DNA of 64,000 bases, taken from the NCBI GenBank assembly GCA_022566315.1, contig JADFJC010000006.1, positions 1 to 64,000 on the forward strand, given 5' to 3'. The position numbers were made by a program, and so were the translations under genes. Shown piece after piece: positions 23,932-56,658 of the stretch. Below the pieces are notes generated by a model. It worked only from the letters and a program-made list of their open reading frames with translations, was not told the origin of the DNA and did not search any database. Every line of letters begins with the position of its first letter. Positions within the stretch are counted from its first letter, which is position 1. The stretch comes from Planctomycetota bacterium. Lineage in GTDB: Bacteria; Planctomycetota; Phycisphaerae; Sedimentisphaerales; Anaerobacaceae.

Positions 23932-24312
23932 TTACTCGTTGCCGACCCAACCAGTTTTCACATTGTAGATGAAGTTGCCTCTCAGGCGACTACTGATGTA
24001 CACAGCATCGCCATTGATGGCGAAAACAGCCTCCAGGTTTTTCTTTACCCTGATTTGTGCTGCTCCTTCTCGAGACAGAGCGCTGTGCAGGTCTGTTCCA
24101 TATTCCAGGATCTGATTATCGGAAAAGCCCGCATGTCGCATCACTCGTACAATGTCATCAGAGCTTAGAGTAAGTACGTCCTGGTTACGCAAAGGTAAGA
24201 TCTCGATCCCGCTATGTGTTGCACAACTAACCACACCAAAAGTCAGAAGCGTCAGCAGCAATGACGCAACAATCACGCCACCATTTCTTGATACCCGGCT
24301 AATCAGCTTCAT
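23932..24312 (-). CDS. Small lipoprotein downstream of the secretin gene
   Basis: A 126-residue protein of no named family. The leader VIVASLLLTLLTFGVVSC ends in a lipobox-like VVSC, so the mature protein would start at a lipidated Cys near residue 30. The rest is short and polar (EILPLRNQDVLTLSSDD, FSDNQILEYGTDLHSAL), ending in a beta-rich stretch. ATG follows AAAGGAGA. The gene begins 30 bp after the secretin gene on the same strand. Many secretins need a small lipoprotein pilotin to reach the outer membrane; position and size fit such a role, but the sequence has no recognisable pilotin signature. Confidence 0.65.
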   Translation of the reverse strand: MKLISRVSRNGGVIVASLLLTLLTFGVVSCATHSGIEILPLRNQDVLTLSSDDIVRVMRHAGFSDNQILEYGTDLHSALSREGAAQIRVKKNLEAVFAINGDAVYISSRLRGNFIYNVKTGWVGNE

Positions 24313-24342
24313 AACTTTTGTCTCCTTTTATCGATATATTTT

Positions 24343-27300
24343 TCATCTGATTGGGCGTGATAAACTGTCCCGAAGCCTCATCCTAAAGTCTCTTTCCAGT
24401 GGTCTGATTGGAGCCTGGGTTATTGTGGGCATGGACGGTTCGACGAATTCGATGGACTGCTGGCCCGGCTCGGGTATAATTGTCGCCGTGACGAAGACAG
24501 CAATCTCCCGCGTGGACTTTTCGTCGTTTGTATTCTTGAACAACGACCCAATAAACGGAAGTTTACTGAGGCCCGGGACCCGCCTCTTATCCGTACGTGT
24601 TCGGTTCTCTGTTAGACCGGCCAGGGCGACCGTCCCACCGTTTTTGATGCGCACAGTGTTCATGGATGTTCGCCGCGTAACAACCGGAAGGTCGCTTTCT
24701 CTGCCGCGAGGTATGCTGTCGCTGACCTCAATGGCCAGTTCCAGTGTAATATCATTATTGTCCCCGATGTAGGGTGTGATATTTAACTTGGTGCCGGACT
24801 CAATCTTTTCCAGTTCGGAACGAGAGTAGAAGCTGGTGGTGACTATCGGCTGGGTCATAAAAAAGTACTCTTCAGTCATGACAGTGATTTCCGCCATCTT
24901 GCCATCTTGAGCCAATATTTGAGGATTGGCTATTATGGTCGCCTCGTCATTCTGAGCAAGAAGATTCAGCGCTAAATCCAGCGAATTGGTGAATGTTGCA
25001 TCTGGCGAATACCCGATTTGGATACCCCACGGCATTTTGCCGCCGAAGTCAACCATACTCGCAATTCCTTTTCCGAAAAGGTCATTGCTAAAAGCTCCGA
25101 CGCGAACCCTGGGGAAACCCCACTCGACACCCAGGTTCAGCAGATTGCCGCGTTCCATCACCACAATACGCGCGTCCAGCAGGACGGCGGGACGAATGTG
25201 GTCGATTTGCTCCAGGTCAGAGATGATACGCTCCAGCAAAGCCGGCGATGCAGTTACAACCACTGTATAGGTATCGGTTCCGGGCCGACCAACTTCGGCC
25301 TGTACGTACTCTCTGAAGGCAGAAGATAGAAGTCCCACTGCCGCATTAGCCGTAATGTAGTTCAGTTTCATCCGGCGTGTTTCGCTCATGAACGGGAACA
25401 TCGTGTCTGTTATGCCTGCTGAAGCAACCAGGTAATAATACGGTGTCTTCTTCCAAATATAAGGAGTTCCGCCCAGGACAATATCGAGCGCCGTTTCGAG
25501 CGGCACATCTTTGAGTGTGACGGTTACCATCGCCATGACGGTCTCATCGGGGATAATGGTAACGTTCGCCAACGATGCGATACTCTGGAGCACATCGATG
25601 ATTTGCTCATCAACCCAGACGTTACTAATAAGCGCTACTGTTGGAACAAGTCCGTTTGGTTCTGCTACTGTTGTAATAACTTTGTCCTTCTTTGCCAAAA
25701 TTTCAGCCAGTGCTCTTTGTATCTCCTCCAAAGGCGATAGCGGTTCGTTAGGCTCAGTAACCGGCGGCAGCGCAGGCGGGATCACCCCAACAAATTCAGG
25801 GCCATCCGGCACAATGGCTCTTGGCCCAACAGGTGTAGGTGTAGGCGTAGTTGTAGGCGTGGTTCTGCGCACGCGAGGAATTGCCGATACTGGCATATCA
25901 TCCTTATAATCTTCCGTAATATTAGTGTATGACTTGTTCGGGAATTGGAACCCTTCTTTTGACAGCGCAATCTCGCCGCTCCAGTTATAGGGCACTTTAA
26001 CACCGAATCTGCCCTTAGAGTCGGTCGCAGCGGTGCCTCCGCCGTTATTTGCTGAGACCTGTACGCCTACGATGGGAGTCCCTCCAACCATCACCGCATC
26101 GGAGATGGTAAACATCCGCACAATCGCTGTGAAAGCCTGATTTGCCTGGTCTTTGGTAATGGACACAGCGTATCGTTTATTTGTCGGCCTGAAGTTATAA
26201 CCTAACCGTGTCGGCGTTACCATGCCGCTCCAGCCGTAATCCACGGTTAGTTCGTACTCGCCATTGGTATTGGTTGTAGCGGAACCTCCGTCTTTGTCTG
26301 CTAATAAGAATATACCTTCGACAGGTTCGCCCCTGTCAGAACGTATTGTACCGGAAATGGTACGCTTCAACAATGCCGCAGTATAGTCCCGATTAACCTC
26401 AGGGCCATAAAGTTCAGGGTATTGTATCTCAGACGGCTCAAAGGTGTAACCTGCCTTTTCCGGCTTAACTGTGCCTTTCCAGGCATATTTGACGACGGCG
26501 CTGTAAGTGCCGTCGCTCTTGCTCATAACGGGCCTGCCAGGCAGACCTTTCAGTGTTACACCACCAACTCCAACAAAACCGTTAATTGTAAAGGTAATCT
26601 CTTTCGCAGTGTAGTTACGATTCTTCTGGTCCGTGGTAATGGCGGCGTGTGGCATATCAGCCGGCGTGAACTCGTAACCGTCCAACATAGGTGTAACCGT
26701 ACCAGTCCAGCCCCAATCAACTTTGGCACTGTACAAGCCGCCTGCACCGGTAACCGGATTACCAGGCAGGCCATCCATTGTTACGCCCTGCTTACCGGCG
26801 GAACCGGAAATGGTTAATATAATCGGGGTCGGAGAGTAAATCTGATTGACCTTGTCGCTCGTAAGTTTAGTGTAGATCATGGTAGCCGGTTTAAATTTGT
26901 AACCTGCCTTTTCCGGCTTGACCGTGCCGCCCCAGCCCCATTCAACACTGGTACTGTAATAGCCGTTCTCATCGGTAAAAATAGCAGTGCCCGGCAGACC
27001 CTTCATTTCTACTCCGTCCATACCGGCCGTGCCGGATACTGTAAAGGTATCCACGAGGGCAGCGTAATCCTGATTAAGATAAGAGCTGATAACATCAGTA
27101 TATGGCATCTCAGCCGGCTCAAAGGTGTGCCCTTGTTTTGTCGGCTTGACTGTGCCGCTCCAGCCGAATTTAACAGTGGCGCTGTACATGCCGTTCCTGC
27201 CGGTCTTCGGATTACCCGGCAGACCATTCATTGTTACGCCCTCTACTTCGGCTGAGCCGGAAATTGTAAAGGTAAGCAGCGCACAAGTGTAGCTCTGATT

Positions 27301-27849
27301 CGGCATATCCCTGATAACGGCAGCGTATGATTTAGTGTTTGGTGTGAATATGTAACCATCCTTTATCGGTGTAGTACTGCCGCTCCAGCCGTAGTCCACA
27401 ATGGCCTTGTAAGTGCCGTCGCTCCCGGTAATCGGATTACCCGGAAGGCCCGCCATTGTCACACCTTCCATTGGTGCACTGTCAATACGAGCTGTACCCG
27501 AAATAGTAAATGTCTTCAGCGTTGCGATGTAGTCCTGATTACTCTGGTCGCTCGTAACTTTTGGATAGGTTCTTTTTTGTGGTTCGAAGGTATAACCTGC
27601 CATTACAGGTGTAACTGTGCCACTCCAGCCGTATTTAACAACGGCGCTGTAGTAACCGTTCTCATCGGTAACTGTGTTCGGCAGACCGTTCATCGTCACG
27701 CCGCTCAGCCCTACTGAACCGGAGATAGTGTAAGTTACCATTTGACCTTCGATTGCTGCCTGGACGCTGACATTCAGCGCGCAGAACACAACAACACAGA
27801 GGACCACAACACCGTCCGATAAAATCCTACCGATATTTTTCCTTGCCAT
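24343..27849 (-). CDS. Secretin-family outer-membrane protein with eight N-terminal repeats
   Basis: A 1168-residue exported protein (signal peptide to about residue 32). Residues 38-658 form eight repeats of 75-84 residues with a YSAVVKYGWSGTVTP-like centre. A Pro/Thr linker (TTTPTPTP) and an acidic region follow to about 735. Then comes an STN-like domain (VTVTLKDVPLETALDIVLGG), an N-type secretin domain, and the secretin core with NPQILAQDGKMAEI and VPGLSKLPFIGSLFK. Secretins form gated outer-membrane channels in type II and III secretion, type IV pili and phages. No ATPase or inner-membrane platform gene is near. The repeats replace the usual N0-N3 stack and may project into the periplasm or outside. 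The PapD-like gene upstream is probably co-transcribed. Confidence 0.88.
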   Translation of the reverse strand: MARKNIGRILSDGVVVLCVVVFCALNVSVQAAIEGQMVTYTISGSVGLSGVTMNGLPNTVTDENGYYSAVVKYGWSGTVTPVMAGYTFEPQKRTYPKVTSDQSNQDYIATLKTFTISGTARIDSAPMEGVTMAGLPGNPITGSDGTYKAIVDYGWSGSTTPIKDGYIFTPNTKSYAAVIRDMPNQSYTCALLTFTISGSAEVEGVTMNGLPGNPKTGRNGMYSATVKFGWSGTVKPTKQGHTFEPAEMPYTDVISSYLNQDYAALVDTFTVSGTAGMDGVEMKGLPGTAIFTDENGYYSTSVEWGWGGTVKPEKAGYKFKPATMIYTKLTSDKVNQIYSPTPIILTISGSAGKQGVTMDGLPGNPVTGAGGLYSAKVDWGWTGTVTPMLDGYEFTPADMPHAAITTDQKNRNYTAKEITFTINGFVGVGGVTLKGLPGRPVMSKSDGTYSAVVKYAWKGTVKPEKAGYTFEPSEIQYPELYGPEVNRDYTAALLKRTISGTIRSDRGEPVEGIFLLADKDGGSATTNTNGEYELTVDYGWSGMVTPTRLGYNFRPTNKRYAVSITKDQANQAFTAIVRMFTISDAVMVGGTPIVGVQVSANNGGGTAATDSKGRFGVKVPYNWSGEIALSKEGFQFPNKSYTNITEDYKDDMPVSAIPRVRRTTPTTTPTPTPVGPRAIVPDGPEFVGVIPPALPPVTEPNEPLSPLEEIQRALAEILAKKDKVITTVAEPNGLVPTVALISNVWVDEQIIDVLQSIASLANVTIIPDETVMAMVTVTLKDVPLETALDIVLGGTPYIWKKTPYYYLVASAGITDTMFPFMSETRRMKLNYITANAAVGLLSSAFREYVQAEVGRPGTDTYTVVVTASPALLERIISDLEQIDHIRPAVLLDARIVVMERGNLLNLGVEWGFPRVRVGAFSNDLFGKGIASMVDFGGKMPWGIQIGYSPDATFTNSLDLALNLLAQNDEATIIANPQILAQDGKMAEITVMTEEYFFMTQPIVTTSFYSRSELEKIESGTKLNITPYIGDNNDITLELAIEVSDSIPRGRESDLPVVTRRTSMNTVRIKNGGTVALAGLTENRTRTDKRRVPGLSKLPFIGSLFKNTNDEKSTREIAVFVTATIIPEPGQQSIEFVEPSMPTITQAPIRPLERDFRMRLRDSLSRPIR
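25876..27738 (-). repeat. Eight tandem protein repeats within the secretin gene
   Basis: Units fall at about residues 38-113, 114-193, 194-268, 269-344, 345-419, 420-495, 496-579 and 580-658. Each has FTISG, GLPGNP, GWSGTVTP, GYxFxP and NQxY positions. Units 7 and 8 are the most diverged. They resemble carboxypeptidase-regulatory-like beta sandwiches. Confidence 0.85.
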
Positions 27850-27956
27850 AAGTCAATGTCCCTTTCTGTAGCCATTAACCGGCAATACTATCGCTCTTTT
27901 GCCTTGTATCGGCAATCCAGCGTCTTTCTTTAGTAGAAAGTCCCTTTGCCGGCGTA

Positions 27957-29639
27957 CTACCATTTAACCTCTATTTTTCCTCCAAGATCCTCTTGTAACT
28001 GCAAAACTTCTATGACCTTCTGCCCTCCCTGGGTCATGACTCGTATACCTATTTGTTTATCTGCCATCTGACCGGTACCGTATTGTAACTCCACCGCGAG
28101 ACGGTACATACCAACGGGAACTCTGGAAAAGTCCATAATTCCGGAGAAATCCCTGGCCTCAAACGGCAGCATCATACCTGTCTTCCTGCTGCTGAGCGAT
28201 GTTATTACCCTGGGCATGCTTGTTGCTGGGTCCACAACAGCGGCCCTGCACCTGATGGGGGTAAAGTGGATGCTGCCGAAATTGCCGAACCTGGCGACAA
28301 TATAATACTCGGACCCATCTTTGAGAGCGGGTCTTAGCGTCATTCCGTAAACAAAAGGTTCGACACTGATATTCTTGTTTGCAACGCAGATGTTTGCAGT
28401 TGTTACGCCGGCCCTCTGCCCATCTGCATAGGTGCTGTACAGACCAAGAAGCGCATAATAACAGGGAAGCGACGCTGATACAGTATCCGGCATCTTTGCA
28501 GTAATGCGTATGCTCTGCTGAGTGTGGCTGCGGAGCGTGAATTTCTGAGGCTCTATCTTCAACCACTCGGTGCAGTCCAAATCGACCCCCTTCAAGTCCC
28601 CGAAAGTAACGCCCTTAAGGGTACGGGGTAACCCGATGGCCATCTGAACATTGACCGGCTCATCCGAAGCGTTATAGACCTTTATCGATGCCATGCGGGT
28701 AGCCCCCGGCAGGCCGCTTATCGAAACAAAACTCGGCAGCAGGTCAAGAGGTGAATCGGTTATCACCTTTGTAACACTCGTGTCGCCGACAAAATCTATC
28801 TCCTTCGTAATCCTTTGTGCGCGCCGGCCATCAACATAGAGCCATCCGGATACCCTGTATTTGGCCGATGGCAGAGGCCGACCGATGTTACTTCTTAATC
28901 TTAATTTGGCCCCCGGGATGATGCGGGTACTACCGAATTCTGTCTCTGTAATTTGTCGCCAGTGCCCATCCAGGAAAGCTTTAACTTGCGCAAAGCCCTT
29001 TAGGTTGGAACGGGTCCCGCCTTTATTATCAATGTTCATCAAGACATGTGTTGTTGCCGGATGTCCTTGACGGGCTTCAATGAGTTCCAGCCCCATATCA
29101 CCAAGTTCTATTTTGTGCCGCAAAGGCCGTCCCTGTACCTCAACAAGCACAGGAACCAAAAATCGCACTGTCACGGCAACATTTCCTTCTAAGTCCGGCC
29201 TGGGTCGTAGGGTCACAAGAATCCCCGCAGCGTAGAATCCACGGGTACGACGCGGCACCCTTACACGTACCTTTATGTAAGCTGAACCCATAAGGGAGAT
29301 TTCAACAGTCTCACGTTCAACGCTTATCCACTTAGTGCACGAAGAAAGCTTTGATGTATCAAAATCAGAATTAGGCTCGATGATTCGCCACTGGCCGTCC
29401 TCCCATTGGGCCATCTCGATAATTGATAGATCTACTATCTGGATCTGGTTCGGGTCGAAACTTTGAAGACCCAGGGCCGTCTCGAATATTCGGCCAGGCA
29501 GGGCCGCAATATCCAGCCTCATCGGTTGGACTACAAACCCCCCCAACTGGCCGAATGCAGACCCCCCAGATACAAATACACTCGCCGCAAATACGACGGC
29601 AAAAAACAGACGGCTATGAGCGACATTTTGCTTCCTCAC
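27957..29639 (-). CDS. Periplasmic protein with two PapD-like (pilus-chaperone-like) modules
   Basis: About 560 residues from a GTG at 29639, which has GGGAGGT seven bases upstream and opens a normal signal peptide (LFFAVVFAASVFVSGGSAFG). Residues about 35-150 (FVVQPMRLDIAALPGRIFE through GFYAAGILVTLRP) and a later stretch (FVSISGLPGATRMASIKVYN through QQSIRITAKMP) look like the immunoglobulin-like folds of pilus chaperones and DUF916-type proteins. Another beta domain lies between them. It has no usher homology. The secretin gene begins 107 bp downstream on the same strand. A role in holding or delivering the small secreted subunits encoded upstream is inference. Confidence 0.65.
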   Translation of the reverse strand: MRKQNVAHSRLFFAVVFAASVFVSGGSAFGQLGGFVVQPMRLDIAALPGRIFETALGLQSFDPNQIQIVDLSIIEMAQWEDGQWRIIEPNSDFDTSKLSSCTKWISVERETVEISLMGSAYIKVRVRVPRRTRGFYAAGILVTLRPRPDLEGNVAVTVRFLVPVLVEVQGRPLRHKIELGDMGLELIEARQGHPATTHVLMNIDNKGGTRSNLKGFAQVKAFLDGHWRQITETEFGSTRIIPGAKLRLRSNIGRPLPSAKYRVSGWLYVDGRRAQRITKEIDFVGDTSVTKVITDSPLDLLPSFVSISGLPGATRMASIKVYNASDEPVNVQMAIGLPRTLKGVTFGDLKGVDLDCTEWLKIEPQKFTLRSHTQQSIRITAKMPDTVSASLPCYYALLGLYSTYADGQRAGVTTANICVANKNISVEPFVYGMTLRPALKDGSEYYIVARFGNFGSIHFTPIRCRAAVVDPATSMPRVITSLSSRKTGMMLPFEARDFSGIMDFSRVPVGMYRLAVELQYGTGQMADKQIGIRVMTQGGQKVIEVLQLQEDLGGKIEVKW

Positions 29640-30031
29640 TTTTTTTACCTCCCAATTACTCAATACACTGATAACTTTGCGGCAAAGTCGAATAATGCCA
29701 ACGGACAATTCCAAAGTTCCTTGTCCGCTTACCATATCTGAGGCTATTATTATTGCACCTTCGTGGCCAATTTCAGGGATTTTACGCCAATGCTGTGGCT
29801 TTTACCTTTTCGGTTATTTAACATCTTTACTTTTTGTAATTACTTCCGAAATCCACATAACGACCGCAAATCCGCAATTATAGTCTCTTAACATCCCCTT
29901 TTGCTCGATAACGATATTGTTTGCACTTATCTTCCTTCCTATACCTGTATTAAACTATTACCAAGTTTATCATTTTCCCACCCCAATGTCAAGTATATTT
30001 TGCCCAAATCTCCCAGATTAACAAAATTGTT
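29640..30031. other. AT-rich gene-free interval upstream of the PapD-like gene
   Basis: No gene is visible. Bases 29755-29775 hold the string TGCACCTTCGTGGCC, close to one at 10610-10625. The interval should carry the promoter of the chaperone-like/secretin transcript, but I cannot pick one box pair with confidence. Confidence 0.4.
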
Positions 30032-30075
30032 TGTAAAAAAATAGAGAGGGCAGATTTAATATCTAGCCCTCTCTA
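30032..30075 (-). terminator. Rho-independent terminator of the 30197-30781 gene
   Basis: A 10-bp perfect stem (TAGAGAGGGC with GCCCTCTCTA, 30042-30051 and 30066-30075) can extend with AGAT/ATCT. On the minus strand it is followed by seven T residues (30035-30041). Confidence 0.85.
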
Positions 30076-30196
30076 TAAAGCCAGTTACAACAAGAAGTAA
30101 GGGATTACGGACCTTTGTCCCAAAAGTTGACTACGGTCCGTCGTCCTCTCGAAGTGATTATACCACTACACACTTCTACTATGGCTGCCCTGAAGC

Positions 30197-30781
30197 TTAG
30201 GGACCTGTGGTGACTACGTCTCCGGGTTTTACAGTTATAGTAATCTGACCAACTTTAACTGAACCAGAAGTTTTTCCAGAATCCCATAGTTTAACTTTCC
30301 AGGCTGTCATACAAATTTTCAAGTCTTCCCACTCACCGTCGCCAAGGATTTCATTATCATCAGTGCTATCCCAGTCAAGAGAGTGATTGCCACCGATGAT
30401 ATCGCTATCGAGATCACTCTCCTCACCGTCAAATGTGGCACCGAAAAAGGCCGGGAAGTTGGCTCTTGCCCTAAAACTCCTGCAGCCTTCGTAGCACGGG
30501 AAGTCGTCGCCGTCCTTACCGATAACGCTGCAGTCTACCTGTTTTAACTTCAGCGCTTCAATATCGCCACAATCCTCTATCTGTACGAAATGACCCACTT
30601 CCAGCTTCACATCAATCGTGCAGATGTTAAAGGTATCGAATGTTATCGTCTGTGTCCATGGCCAGCCGCCAGGATCTGTTTGTGGGTCCAATTTGATGAA
30701 ACCATCAGGTTGTGAAATAGCCTGAACTGTGGTTGCCAGCAGCGCTACAACTGCAATTGCAATTAAACATTTCTTTACCAT
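30197..30781 (-). CDS. Small secreted protein, possible surface subunit
   Basis: A 194-residue exported protein with signal peptide MVKKCLIAIAVVALLATTVQA. The mature part is acidic and beta-rich, with cysteines (FNICTIDVKL, QIEDCGDIEAL, QVDCSVIG, FPCYEGCRSF, LKICMTAW) that could form disulfides, and ends in a beta strand pair SVKVGQITITVKPGD. No family is recognised. ATG follows AAAGGGA. It has its own terminator and a long leader, and lies between another small secreted protein and the PapD-like/secretin genes. An abundant structural subunit of a surface layer or fibre would fit, but this is inference. Confidence 0.7.
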   Translation of the reverse strand: MVKKCLIAIAVVALLATTVQAISQPDGFIKLDPQTDPGGWPWTQTITFDTFNICTIDVKLEVGHFVQIEDCGDIEALKLKQVDCSVIGKDGDDFPCYEGCRSFRARANFPAFFGATFDGEESDLDSDIIGGNHSLDWDSTDDNEILGDGEWEDLKICMTAWKVKLWDSGKTSGSVKVGQITITVKPGDVVTTGP

Positions 30782-31110
30782 TTTAATATCCCTTTCTTAA
30801 CCCTCGCTCCTCGAAAGGCCTACGTTGGCCTGCGGAGCTAACAATAATATTTCTTTAGCTCAAACCCAATGCCTGAGCCATACGTTCAGCGGGACGAAAC
30901 CTCTTTGACCGACCCCTGCGAATATCCCCGCTTTACTGCCCGCCTGAGTCGGGACCCATAAGAACTGCGATTTCCATCCGGGATTCTCGTTCCCGGTGAG
31001 TTAATCGTTTTACCGCCTCAAGAACGGGCCTGCTTCTTCAGGCGTTTCGTAAGCATCTTTACGCTTACGAGTTATCACTTCCTACTACTCATACCTCCTT
31101 TCTCCCCCAA
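30782..31110 (-). promoter_or_regulatory. Candidate structured leader of the 30197-30781 gene
   Basis: Read on the minus strand, about 330 bases upstream of the start fold into several strong hairpins: GTAAGCG/CGCTTAC-type near 31050-31070, CCGGGA-ACGAGAA-TCCCGG near 30977-30996, GCGGG/CCCGC around 30888-30932, GCTCA/TGAGC near 30857-30877, and GCTCC-AGGCC/GGCCT-GGAGC just before the ribosome site (30806-30838). No riboswitch class is matched clearly. Confidence 0.4.
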
Positions 31111-31237
31111 CCCTTATTATTCTAAGAGAAGGGGTTGTTCTATTTGAACAACTTCTATCCACAAACCCTGGGCATTGATAATCGCTTATTATGACGCAGC
31201 AAAATCCTTCTAACTTTTTCATCACCATCTTCTCCAA

Positions 31238-31729
31238 TTAAGGGGGTGGTGGCATTATCGTAAATGTAATAGTTCCCGTGTAGCTTCCCGCATGGTCAGA
31301 GGGATAGATATCCAGCCGGAAATTCAGCTCAATGTCATGTGACCCTATTTCTGGCCTCGATATAACCACTGGCTTTGCCATTGTAACGTATCCGTTCGTT
31401 GTCGGCGCTTTGATGAAAATACGCTCAGGTGGTATGGAGCCGCCTCTGGGGTGTTTCAGCGCTGTAATAGAGGCCACTATCGGCCCGTGCAGATAATTAG
31501 ATTCCACCTTCACTGTTAATGCCGCTGACGACATGAAATAGATGTTTGGAAATATAACACTTCCCGGTCCAAAAGAGGTGTCGCCGTCTGAGAAGAGCGC
31601 AGGCGTTCCAAATTCAAGACTCCCCGACGTGGTAGATATGTTCACGAACGGCCCAGAATCAGCCTGGGCAATTCCAGCCACTCCGAACAATACTACTGCC
31701 GTCAATAATAAAGTTGTTACTATTTTCAT
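31238..31729 (-). CDS. Small secreted pilin/adhesin-like protein
   Basis: About 163 residues from the ATG at 31729 (ribosome site GGGAGG). Signal peptide MKIVTTLLLTAVVLFGVAGIAQA. The mature part is beta-rich, starting FVNISTTSGSLEFGTPALF and ending in the strand AGSYTGTITFTI followed by PPPP. That final motif is common in fimbrial-subunit-like and DUF4402-like folds. No cysteines. Together with the neighbouring 194-residue protein it is a candidate cargo or subunit of the adjacent PapD-like/secretin proteins. The family is not named with confidence. Confidence 0.7.
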   Translation of the reverse strand: MKIVTTLLLTAVVLFGVAGIAQADSGPFVNISTTSGSLEFGTPALFSDGDTSFGPGSVIFPNIYFMSSAALTVKVESNYLHGPIVASITALKHPRGGSIPPERIFIKAPTTNGYVTMAKPVVISRPEIGSHDIELNFRLDIYPSDHAGSYTGTITFTIMPPPP

Positions 31730-32740
31730 TGTTCCCTCCCCCAAAAAAAACCTACTTTCAAATAACAGTTTCTCTGCGCCGCCAACGGTTAACAGCAAGC
31801 CTAATTGCTTTGCCGCTCCATCGGATTTAAGGCGGTCCGTTTTGCTGTCTCGGCACCTGCTACGTTAGTGCCGTCTGTCATTGGTTACGCAGCGTCTCCT
31901 GACCACCTGGCTAAGCTTTGCCAGAGGGCTCGAAAGCGAGGATATAAAGAAATGAAGTATGTGATGTCTTTTCATCTTTCCTCATCATCACCACTCTCCT
32001 CACTTTCACTCTCCATATTCCTGGCCCGGCACCGAAAAAACCGAGTACCGGACGAGCAAGGCCCTACGCATATATGACACGGCCACACTTAGTTATACAC
32101 CTTGCTAACTTATCAAAACTACCAGTTTTCTTTCTCTATGTCAATAGCTAAATTCTAAAATTTAACTTTTTTCCTTTTTAGCCGGTTTTTAGTATTTTAC
32201 CCAAATTACCCCGTGATGTCAATAATTAAATTACCTAAACCACCAAAAAGGTGGCCATTTTTTGTTTTTTTCGGACTCTGACTTCTCCGGGTTATACTCT
32301 GCCCGACAGACCGGCTAATCCATGAGTTTACGTAAAACCTTATAACACAAAGGGATACAATGCGACAGGTATGGTCAGGATAGTGGTTCAGCCGCTGGCG
32401 GAACTCGCGTAGTCTTCCAATAAGTACAGTTGGTCAAGACTTTTTTTTTGGTTCCTGAATATTTATTTTCCCGGATTTAGGAACGTTCTTTGGTGCATTT
32501 ACTGTTTTTTGCCGCAAGACCAAATTCTTGATAACACCGGTTTTTTGTGAGCCGATTTGATACGGTTTTATTTGATTGGCCGACAACGCAGGCATCGGGC
32601 TTCCCTTGGGGATAGAGCGTTTTGGATAGGCTCTTAATCTTCTTGCAATATTGGCCGGTTGGATGTAAAGTGGACGAAAATTTATTGGAACGGCGTTTTT
32701 CGTTTAGAACATTATGAGGTCCTAAAAAAAACAGGGCTTT
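31730..32740. other. Long gene-free interval before tRNA-Arg
   Basis: No convincing protein gene in about 1 kb. Bases 31790-31945, read on the minus strand, form the leader of the 31238 gene and contain hairpins (CTGGC/GCCAG at 31905-31923; GGCACTAACGTAGCAGGTGCC near 31850-31872) plus a GGCAAAGCAATTAGGC word near 31800-31815. At 32240-32270 a short stem CCACC/GGTGG is followed by T-rich DNA on the plus strand. The rest is AT-rich with nothing I can name. Confidence 0.45.
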
Positions 32741-56229: not shown

Positions 56230-56658
56230 GAGTCGCATATCCTACTAACCGCTCCATTTACCCCTCTTATCGAGGGGGACCGTTCGGGCCTTCCCCACCT
56301 TCGGCGGGTACTATGCCCTCTGCTGACTTCTGCATGGCGGTCAGGAAACCTCACGATTGCCTCAGTCCCGAATCCGGGACACCATGCAGACCTCCCGAGG
56401 TAAGTTCGACAACCTTCACCGCACACCTGCCGAATATACAGCCCTGGACTTTGATGGATATGGACTTTGTTGTCTTTGGCCAACTCGTCCAGCCAGTACT
56501 GCCTCGTATCCGGTTTCTGTTCGTCAGGTCACGGCTTTGCTACACGCTTCCTTAGAACCCTGCCTCACGGCAACGCTCTTGCGCTTCGCTAACACTTCAC
56601 CTCCATCAGGTTGTGTAGAGGACTTACACCTCCAAGTTGCCGAACATGCTCGGCACAC

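What the first reader, a model, noticed from the sequence alone, without database searches (positions are those of the whole stretch)
23932..31729. Candidate new surface-structure assembly locus: PapD-like protein plus repeat-bearing secretin
In order on one strand: two small secreted beta-rich proteins, a protein with two pilus-chaperone-like modules, a secretin with eight N-terminal repeats instead of the usual N-domains, and a small lipoprotein in the position of a pilotin. There is no usher, no GspE-like ATPase and no inner-membrane platform nearby. A chaperone-like protein feeding a secretin-type channel would differ from both chaperone-usher and type II systems.
Basis: inference. Interest (0 to 1): 0.7.

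Follow-up and report, generated by a model that had tools for sequence, protein, structure and literature searches.

The report
Usherless chaperone–secretin surface-protein assembly locus
Planctomycete bacteria carry a conserved five-gene set that seems to fold small surface proteins with an Ig-type chaperone and pass them through a secretin pore, without the usher or motor that known systems need; the gene set is real and widespread, its function is inferred.

Summary
Five exported proteins lie on the minus strand in the stated order: small1, small2, an Ig-domain chaperone-like protein, a secretin with eight ~76-aa transthyretin-like repeats, and a lipoprotein. The repeats are added in front of N0/N1 domains; they do not replace them.

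The refutation tests were run and failed to refute. Chaperone-like gene and secretin are adjacent in 31/31 informative loci, lipoprotein in 34/35, small2 in 25/26, small1 in 21/26. The AlphaFold model has four Ig-like domains in two duplicated modules; its closest solved protein is Enterococcus WxLIP, then the fimbrial chaperones CfaA and CsuC. It is not in Pfam PapD_N.

In one genome the chaperone-like domains are fused to a small2 domain. In another a subunit domain ends a 706-aa adhesin-like protein. The small2 gene carries a structured RNA leader with covariation, absent from Rfam.

No usher occurs in the genome. No GspE-like gene lies near any locus, but ~10 exist elsewhere. Most likely a chaperone–secretin export/assembly route; mechanism untested.

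The parts
31238..31729 (-). small1: 163-aa secreted Ig-like protein ending AGSYTGTITFTIMPPPP; putative pilin-like subunit
   Evidence: ORF; homologs in 21 of 26 loci with enough upstream sequence; AF2 pLDDT 83, >95 in the core; weak Foldseek matches, many of them chaperone-usher pilins (CfaB, PapG pilin domain, CsuA/B, FimA; E 1e-3 to 3e-2)
30790..31110 (-). structured RNA leader of small2: invariant GGGAGAAAGGAGGT, five helices, pseudoknot between the helix-2 loop and downstream
   Evidence: A11: 94.7% of cells paired against 30-42% in slid controls, 11 pairs with both-side changes; pseudoknot in 15/16 with C-G to U-A exchange; no Rfam hit; core 31012-31106 is the only copy in the genome
30197..30781 (-). 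small2: 194-aa secreted beta-rich protein, duplicated in some relatives; putative subunit
   Evidence: ORF; homologs in 25 of 26 loci; fused to chaperone-like domains in L094; distant similarity to small1 (hhalign prob 84)
30034..30075 (-). probable intrinsic terminator after small2 (AGAGAGGGC...GCCCTCTCT then a T-run)
27957..29735 (-). chaperone-like protein: four Ig-like domains = two tandem WxLIP/PapD-like modules (residues ~62-322 and 323-592)
   Evidence: AF2 pLDDT 83; Foldseek to WxLIP 9i25/9i1y TM 0.59-0.64, CfaA 0.57-0.58, CsuC 0.49; WxLIP_PGBD 3e-4; duplication D1-D3 hhalign 94%
24343..27849 (-). secretin, 1168 aa, with N-terminal repeats, N0/N1 and secretin domain
   Evidence: Pfam; below the cut-off of every NCBIfam secretin family; own clade
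25870..27729 (-). eight transthyretin/CarboxypepD_reg-like repeats of the secretin
25201..25617 (-). N0 (STN) and N1 (Secretin_N) domains of the secretin
   Evidence: STN 17/17 and Secretin_N 7/17 relatives
24475..24960 (-). secretin channel domain
23932..24312 (-). 126-aa lipoprotein, candidate pilotin
   Evidence: lipobox Cys30 invariant in 17 sequences; directly downstream of the secretin in 34 of 35 loci; no Pfam, NCBIfam or convincing PDB match

Best explanation
The locus is a chaperone–secretin cassette. Shown: five exported proteins, conserved as a unit; a tandem Ig-domain protein related to WxLIP and fold-similar to fimbrial chaperones; a distinct secretin; a lipoprotein; two small Ig-like or beta-rich proteins; a structured RNA leader on the small2 gene. 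Inferred: small1 and small2 cross the inner membrane by Sec. In the periplasm they are held by the two modules of the chaperone-like protein, possibly one module per subunit. They are handed to the repeat-bearing periplasmic part of the secretin, which the lipoprotein helps to place in the outer membrane. They are then exported and displayed or polymerised at the surface. The RNA leader sets the dose of the major subunit small2. Energy would come from folding/assembly, as in chaperone-usher systems, or from a motor encoded elsewhere.
For: Co-conservation of all parts. The simpler version keeps the same logic: WxLIP-like protein next to a secretin, flanked by small secreted proteins ending AGxYxATQTLTVxW, and its chaperone is homologous (hhalign 99.8%, 4e-30). 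Fusion of two chaperone-like domains with a small2 domain in L094 (335-439, 2e-9) points to direct interaction. A subunit domain forms the C-terminus of a 706-aa multidomain protein in L105, as an adhesin carrying an assembly domain would. Foldseek places the chaperone with WxLIP, CfaA and CsuC, and small1 weakly with pilins. For WxLIP, AlphaFold2 predicts that a WxLIP strand completes the WxL sandwich (PMC10599100). Secretin without an adjacent GspE in every locus tested, outside all curated secretin families and separate from the genome's other secretins.
Against: No biochemical or genetic data. Complexes could not be modelled, so strand donation is untested. Small1's fold matches are weak (best E 9e-4, TM about 0.4-0.46), and small2 was not modelled. 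WxLIP is an anchoring/binding protein in Gram-positives, not a proven chaperone. The genome has about ten GspE homologs elsewhere, so a motor cannot be excluded. I know of no precedent for folded subunits passing a secretin without a pseudopilus or pilus motor.
Confidence: 0.55

Rival explanations
1. A diderm counterpart of the Gram-positive WxL surface complex. The WxLIP-like protein and small proteins form a permanent cell-wall or outer-surface complex that binds glycans or neighbours, and the secretin only exports or anchors it.
For: Closest sequence and fold relative is WxLIP (the simple-type protein reaches PF06030 at 1.3e-11 and PF11797 at 5e-6). WxL clusters also combine one WxLIP with a short and a long partner, as in L105 with its adhesin-like long subunit.
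Against: No WxL-domain match for any small protein; no transmembrane or LPXTG anchor on the WxLIP-like protein (sequence); WxL clusters as described in PMC10599100 have no secretin.
Confidence: 0.2
2. A specialised outer-membrane part of a type II or type IV pilus machine whose ATPase and platform are encoded elsewhere; the Ig-domain protein is a substrate adaptor.
For: The genome has 12 secretin matches and about ten complete GspE homologs; the secretin keeps N0 and N1 as in PilQ/GspD.
Against: No GspE-like ORF in any of the related loci tested. The secretin scores far below GspD and PilQ cut-offs (140 vs 351; 134 vs 284 bits) and groups away from the genome's other secretins. The small proteins lack a type IV prepilin N-terminus (sequence).
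Confidence: 0.2
3. Chance neighbours, or a MAG assembly artefact.
For: The genes come from metagenome-assembled genomes, and the intergenic gaps are large.
Against: Same order in 31 distinct loci including single-contig chromosomes CP070675, CP070806 and CP070782, plus the fused gene.
Confidence: 0.01

Closest known systems
WxL / WxLIP (DUF916-DUF3324) clusters of Firmicutes (PMC10599100)
   Same: Two-Ig-domain WxLIP-like protein beside short and long small-domain partners; best PDB match 9i25/9i1y; predicted strand completion between partners
   Different: Here the module is duplicated, there is no membrane anchor, the partners are not WxL domains by profile, and a secretin plus lipoprotein are built in
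Chaperone-usher pili, alpha class (CFA/I, CfaA-CfaB-CfaC) and archaic Csu
   Same: Ig-type chaperone fold (CfaA TM 0.58, CsuC 0.49), small Ig-like subunits, and 14/17 secretins match CooC_C, a C-terminal domain of CS1-type pilus formation proteins, in their repeats
   Different: No usher in the genome, no PapD_N match; the outer-membrane pore is a secretin
Type II secretion / type IV pilus secretins (GspD, PilQ)
   Same: N0, N1 and secretin domain; nearby lipoprotein as candidate pilotin
   Different: No adjacent ATPase, platform or pseudopilins; far below family cut-offs; eight beta-repeats in front

Membership tests
Chaperone-usher pathway | outer-membrane usher (PF00577) | tested here: not met
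   no match in the whole genome, E. coli control rings
Chaperone-usher pathway | PapD_N chaperone (PF00345) | tested here: not met
   no match in the genome; fold only similar
Chaperone-usher pathway | donor-strand complementation between chaperone and subunit | not testable with these tools
   complexes cannot be modelled here
Type II secretion system | GspE ATPase and platform in the locus | tested here: not met
   no GspE on contig C180, none in related loci; present elsewhere in the genome. The platform protein GspF was not searched separately
Type II secretion system | GspD equivalog score (TIGR02517 cut-off 351) | tested here: not met
   140 bits
Type IV pilus | PilQ subfamily score (TIGR02515 cut-off 284) | tested here: not met
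   134 bits
Secretin superfamily | PF00263 domain with N0/N1 | tested here: met
   7e-36; STN 17/17
WxL/WxLIP system | WxLIP_PGBD (PF06030) above gathering score | tested here: inconclusive
   window protein 21.2 of 27.3 bits, below; simple-type homolog L102 45 bits, above
WxL/WxLIP system | partner proteins with WxL domain | tested here: not met
   no match in any small protein
Pilotins | lipoprotein that binds the secretin C-terminus | not testable with these tools
   only lipobox and position shown

The most novel reading that the evidence does not exclude
A third kind of chaperone-dependent outer-membrane assembly pathway, the chaperone–secretin pathway. Ig-like subunits are capped by WxLIP-type chaperone modules and exported through a dedicated secretin without an ATPase. 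A widespread simple form and an elaborated form exist, the latter with transthyretin-like repeats, a pilotin-like lipoprotein and a new RNA leader that controls the main subunit.
Probability: 0.38. Interest if true: 0.87.

Novelty: categorically new. Interest (0 to 1): 0.72.

Why it matters
If right, secretins are not tied to pseudopilus/ATPase machines: they can take over the usher's role. It would link the Gram-positive WxL system, fimbrial chaperones and secretins in one evolutionary picture. The loci and their boundaries are now defined, so the question can be tested by co-expression and structure. The RNA leader is a separate, directly testable regulatory element.

Tried and rejected
Small1 as a WxL domain or DUF4402/spore-coat-U protein: suggested by the C-terminal YTGTITFTI motif, but no Pfam match and no WxL chain among the top 50 fold matches. 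Known riboswitch in the small2 leader: no Rfam match even at permissive thresholds. Top Foldseek matches of the chaperone to ciliary central-pair proteins were set aside as long strings of Ig domains with low TM-scores (up to 0.31). Conserved antisense ORFs in the clusters are shadows of the coding strand. Sigma-70-type promoters: 12 found against 11.2 expected, so no claim, although the two best of the minus strand lie upstream of small1 (32222) and of the chaperone gene (29992). The genome-contig scan with the chaperone alignment failed for lack of conserved stretches, so the secretin was used. A first RNA pattern was too strict and missed even the window copy. RNAalifold on the 20-sequence set gave a positive covariation term, probably from misalignment; the 16-sequence set was used. 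Literature searches found no description of this cassette.

Full report
Observation. Between 23932 and 31729 on the minus strand lie, in transcription order, small1 (31729-31238), small2 (30781-30197), a 592-aa chaperone-like protein (29735-27957), a 1168-aa secretin (27849-24343) and a 126-aa lipoprotein (24312-23932). The neighbours are unrelated housekeeping or metabolic genes: ClpB, sulfatase and glutamine synthetase on one side, tRNA-Arg, GMP synthase and RuvB on the other. The secretin domain is unambiguous. The eight repeats are real, 74-84 aa each, with repeats 1-6 at 42-59% pairwise identity, and are transthyretin/CarboxypepD_reg-like. The claim that they stand instead of N-domains is wrong: every one of 17 relatives matches STN (N0), and seven match Secretin_N.

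Conservation. A protein search of 99 relatives and a scan of named GTDB genomes gave 37 distinct loci with the repeat-bearing secretin, all from Planctomycetota MAGs or chromosomes titled Phycisphaerae, Phycisphaerales or Sedimentisphaerales where a class or order is given. Counting only loci whose contig extends far enough (my count), the chaperone gene precedes the secretin in 31/31, the lipoprotein follows in 34/35, small2 is present in 25/26 and small1 in 21/26. Small2 is duplicated in three close relatives. Protein identities to the window fall to 31% (chaperone), 38% (secretin), 28% (lipoprotein), 22% (small1) and 19% (small2). No GspE-like ORF occurs in the flanks of the loci tested. 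The window's own genome has 12 secretin matches, 21 T2SSE-family matches and no usher.

The chaperone-like protein. AlphaFold2 on 19 sequences gives mean pLDDT 83 with four beta-sandwich domains (the division into four domains is my reading of the strand pattern). Domains 1 and 3 are homologous (hhalign 93.7%), and each half aligns to the same part of the simple-type protein (99.4% and 98.0%), so the protein is a tandem duplication of a two-domain module. Foldseek against the PDB puts E. faecium WxLIP first among compact proteins (TM by target 0.59-0.64), then the CFA/I chaperone CfaA (0.57-0.58) and CsuC (0.49). By sequence it is a sub-threshold WxLIP_PGBD match, hits EfmWxLIP1 in the PDB at E 0.04, and no PapD_N match was found in the genome. 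The published WxLIP work reports an AlphaFold2 prediction in which a WxLIP strand fills a gap in the WxL sandwich (PMC10599100); that is the basis for inferring a strand-donating role here.

A simpler, wider version. Secretin relatives without repeats led to 20 loci in which a WxLIP-like protein of about 425-460 aa (580 aa in one, 307 aa cut by a contig end in another) sits directly beside a ~450-580-aa secretin. Most are flanked by one to three small secreted proteins with an AGxYxATQTLTVxW C-terminus. The two chaperone families are homologous (hhalign 99.8%, E 4e-30). One simple-type member, L102, is a full Pfam WxLIP_PGBD member (1.3e-11) with a WxLIP_HBD match (5e-6). They occur in other families of the class and in other families of the phylum, at modest frequency (30 of 396 class genomes, 7 of 392 phylum genomes, counts that include distant matches to the elaborated form). 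L103 and L117 are intermediates: lipoprotein, repeat-less secretin and long chaperone. In the secretin tree the repeat-bearing type is one clade (96), with L103 as nearest outsider and the genome's other secretins apart, though long branches make deep joins unsafe. The repeats were therefore probably added after the cassette had formed (inference).

Two natural fusions. In L094 a 442-aa protein joins two chaperone-like N-domains (16-175, 180-328) to a small2 domain (335-439, E 2e-9). In L105 a subunit domain ends a 706-aa protein whose first 550 residues look like adhesin or repeat domains by eye. The first argues that chaperone module and small2 interact; the second that subunit domains can carry cargo to the surface, as in long WxL proteins or tip adhesins.

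Small proteins. Small1 modelled well (pLDDT 83, above 95 in the core). Its fold matches are weak, but chaperone-usher pilins are prominent among them. Small1 and small2 profiles are distantly alike (hhalign 84%). Small1 and the simple-type subunits share the C-terminal strand (90%). Small2 was not modelled.

RNA leader. The small1-small2 gap is 411-466 nt in every locus except L075 (372), while the small2-chaperone gap varies from about 370 to 1457 nt. The gap contains an invariant GGGAGAAAGGAGGT, five helices with 94.7% of cells paired against 30-42% for slid controls, and 11 pairs with changes on both sides. A loop-downstream pairing GGCC[C/U] with [G/A]GGYC is kept in 15/16 sequences. Nothing in Rfam matches. 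A covariance model finds one copy in this genome and copies in 21 of 99 relatives, including 19 of the 20 genomes with a strong chaperone match. All six further contigs with copies carry a small2 gene beside the element. It is thus a cis-acting leader of small2, function unknown; a role in subunit dosage is inference.

Mechanism. The parts fit a route in which the Ig-domain protein chaperones small1 and small2 in the periplasm and delivers them to the secretin, whose repeat arms reach into the periplasm, with the lipoprotein as pilotin. Shown: composition, conservation, homologies, fusions. Inferred: transient binding, export, surface assembly, pilotin role, absence of a motor. Rivals are a permanent WxL-like surface complex and an outer-membrane module of a motor-driven machine encoded elsewhere.

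Novelty. Tested defining features of chaperone-usher, type II and type IV systems are not met, and WxL membership is only partial. No description was found in the searched literature, which excludes most subscription papers. I rate the system categorically new as a kind, with moderate confidence because function is untested.

Noticed in passing
window 30790-31110 (minus strand): Structured RNA leader with a pseudoknot and an invariant GGGAGAAAGGAGGT (complementary to the 16S rRNA 3' end, from general knowledge), always upstream of small2 genes and not in Rfam; a candidate new RNA family.
   Followed up: partly
window 31733-32200 (minus strand): Another long leader (about 465 nt after a TTGACA-17-TAAAAT promoter-like site) precedes small1; not aligned with relatives.
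   Followed up: no
L095 1589-2969: A flagellin gene and a probable flagellin-chaperone gene (my reading of the translations) lie just upstream of a simple-type chaperone-secretin locus.
   Followed up: no
L105 1818-3938: 706-aa multidomain protein ending in a subunit domain, resembling an adhesin carried by the system.
   Followed up: partly
L118-L123: Small2 genes with the RNA leader outside the cassette; G058 has three small2 copies, each with a leader.
   Followed up: partly
window 56287-56574 (minus strand): Two Rfam group II intron domain matches (RF02001, RF01998); no intron protein examined.
   Followed up: no
L030 2230-5742: The secretin gene is split into several frames in one relative; frameshift or assembly error.
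   Followed up: no
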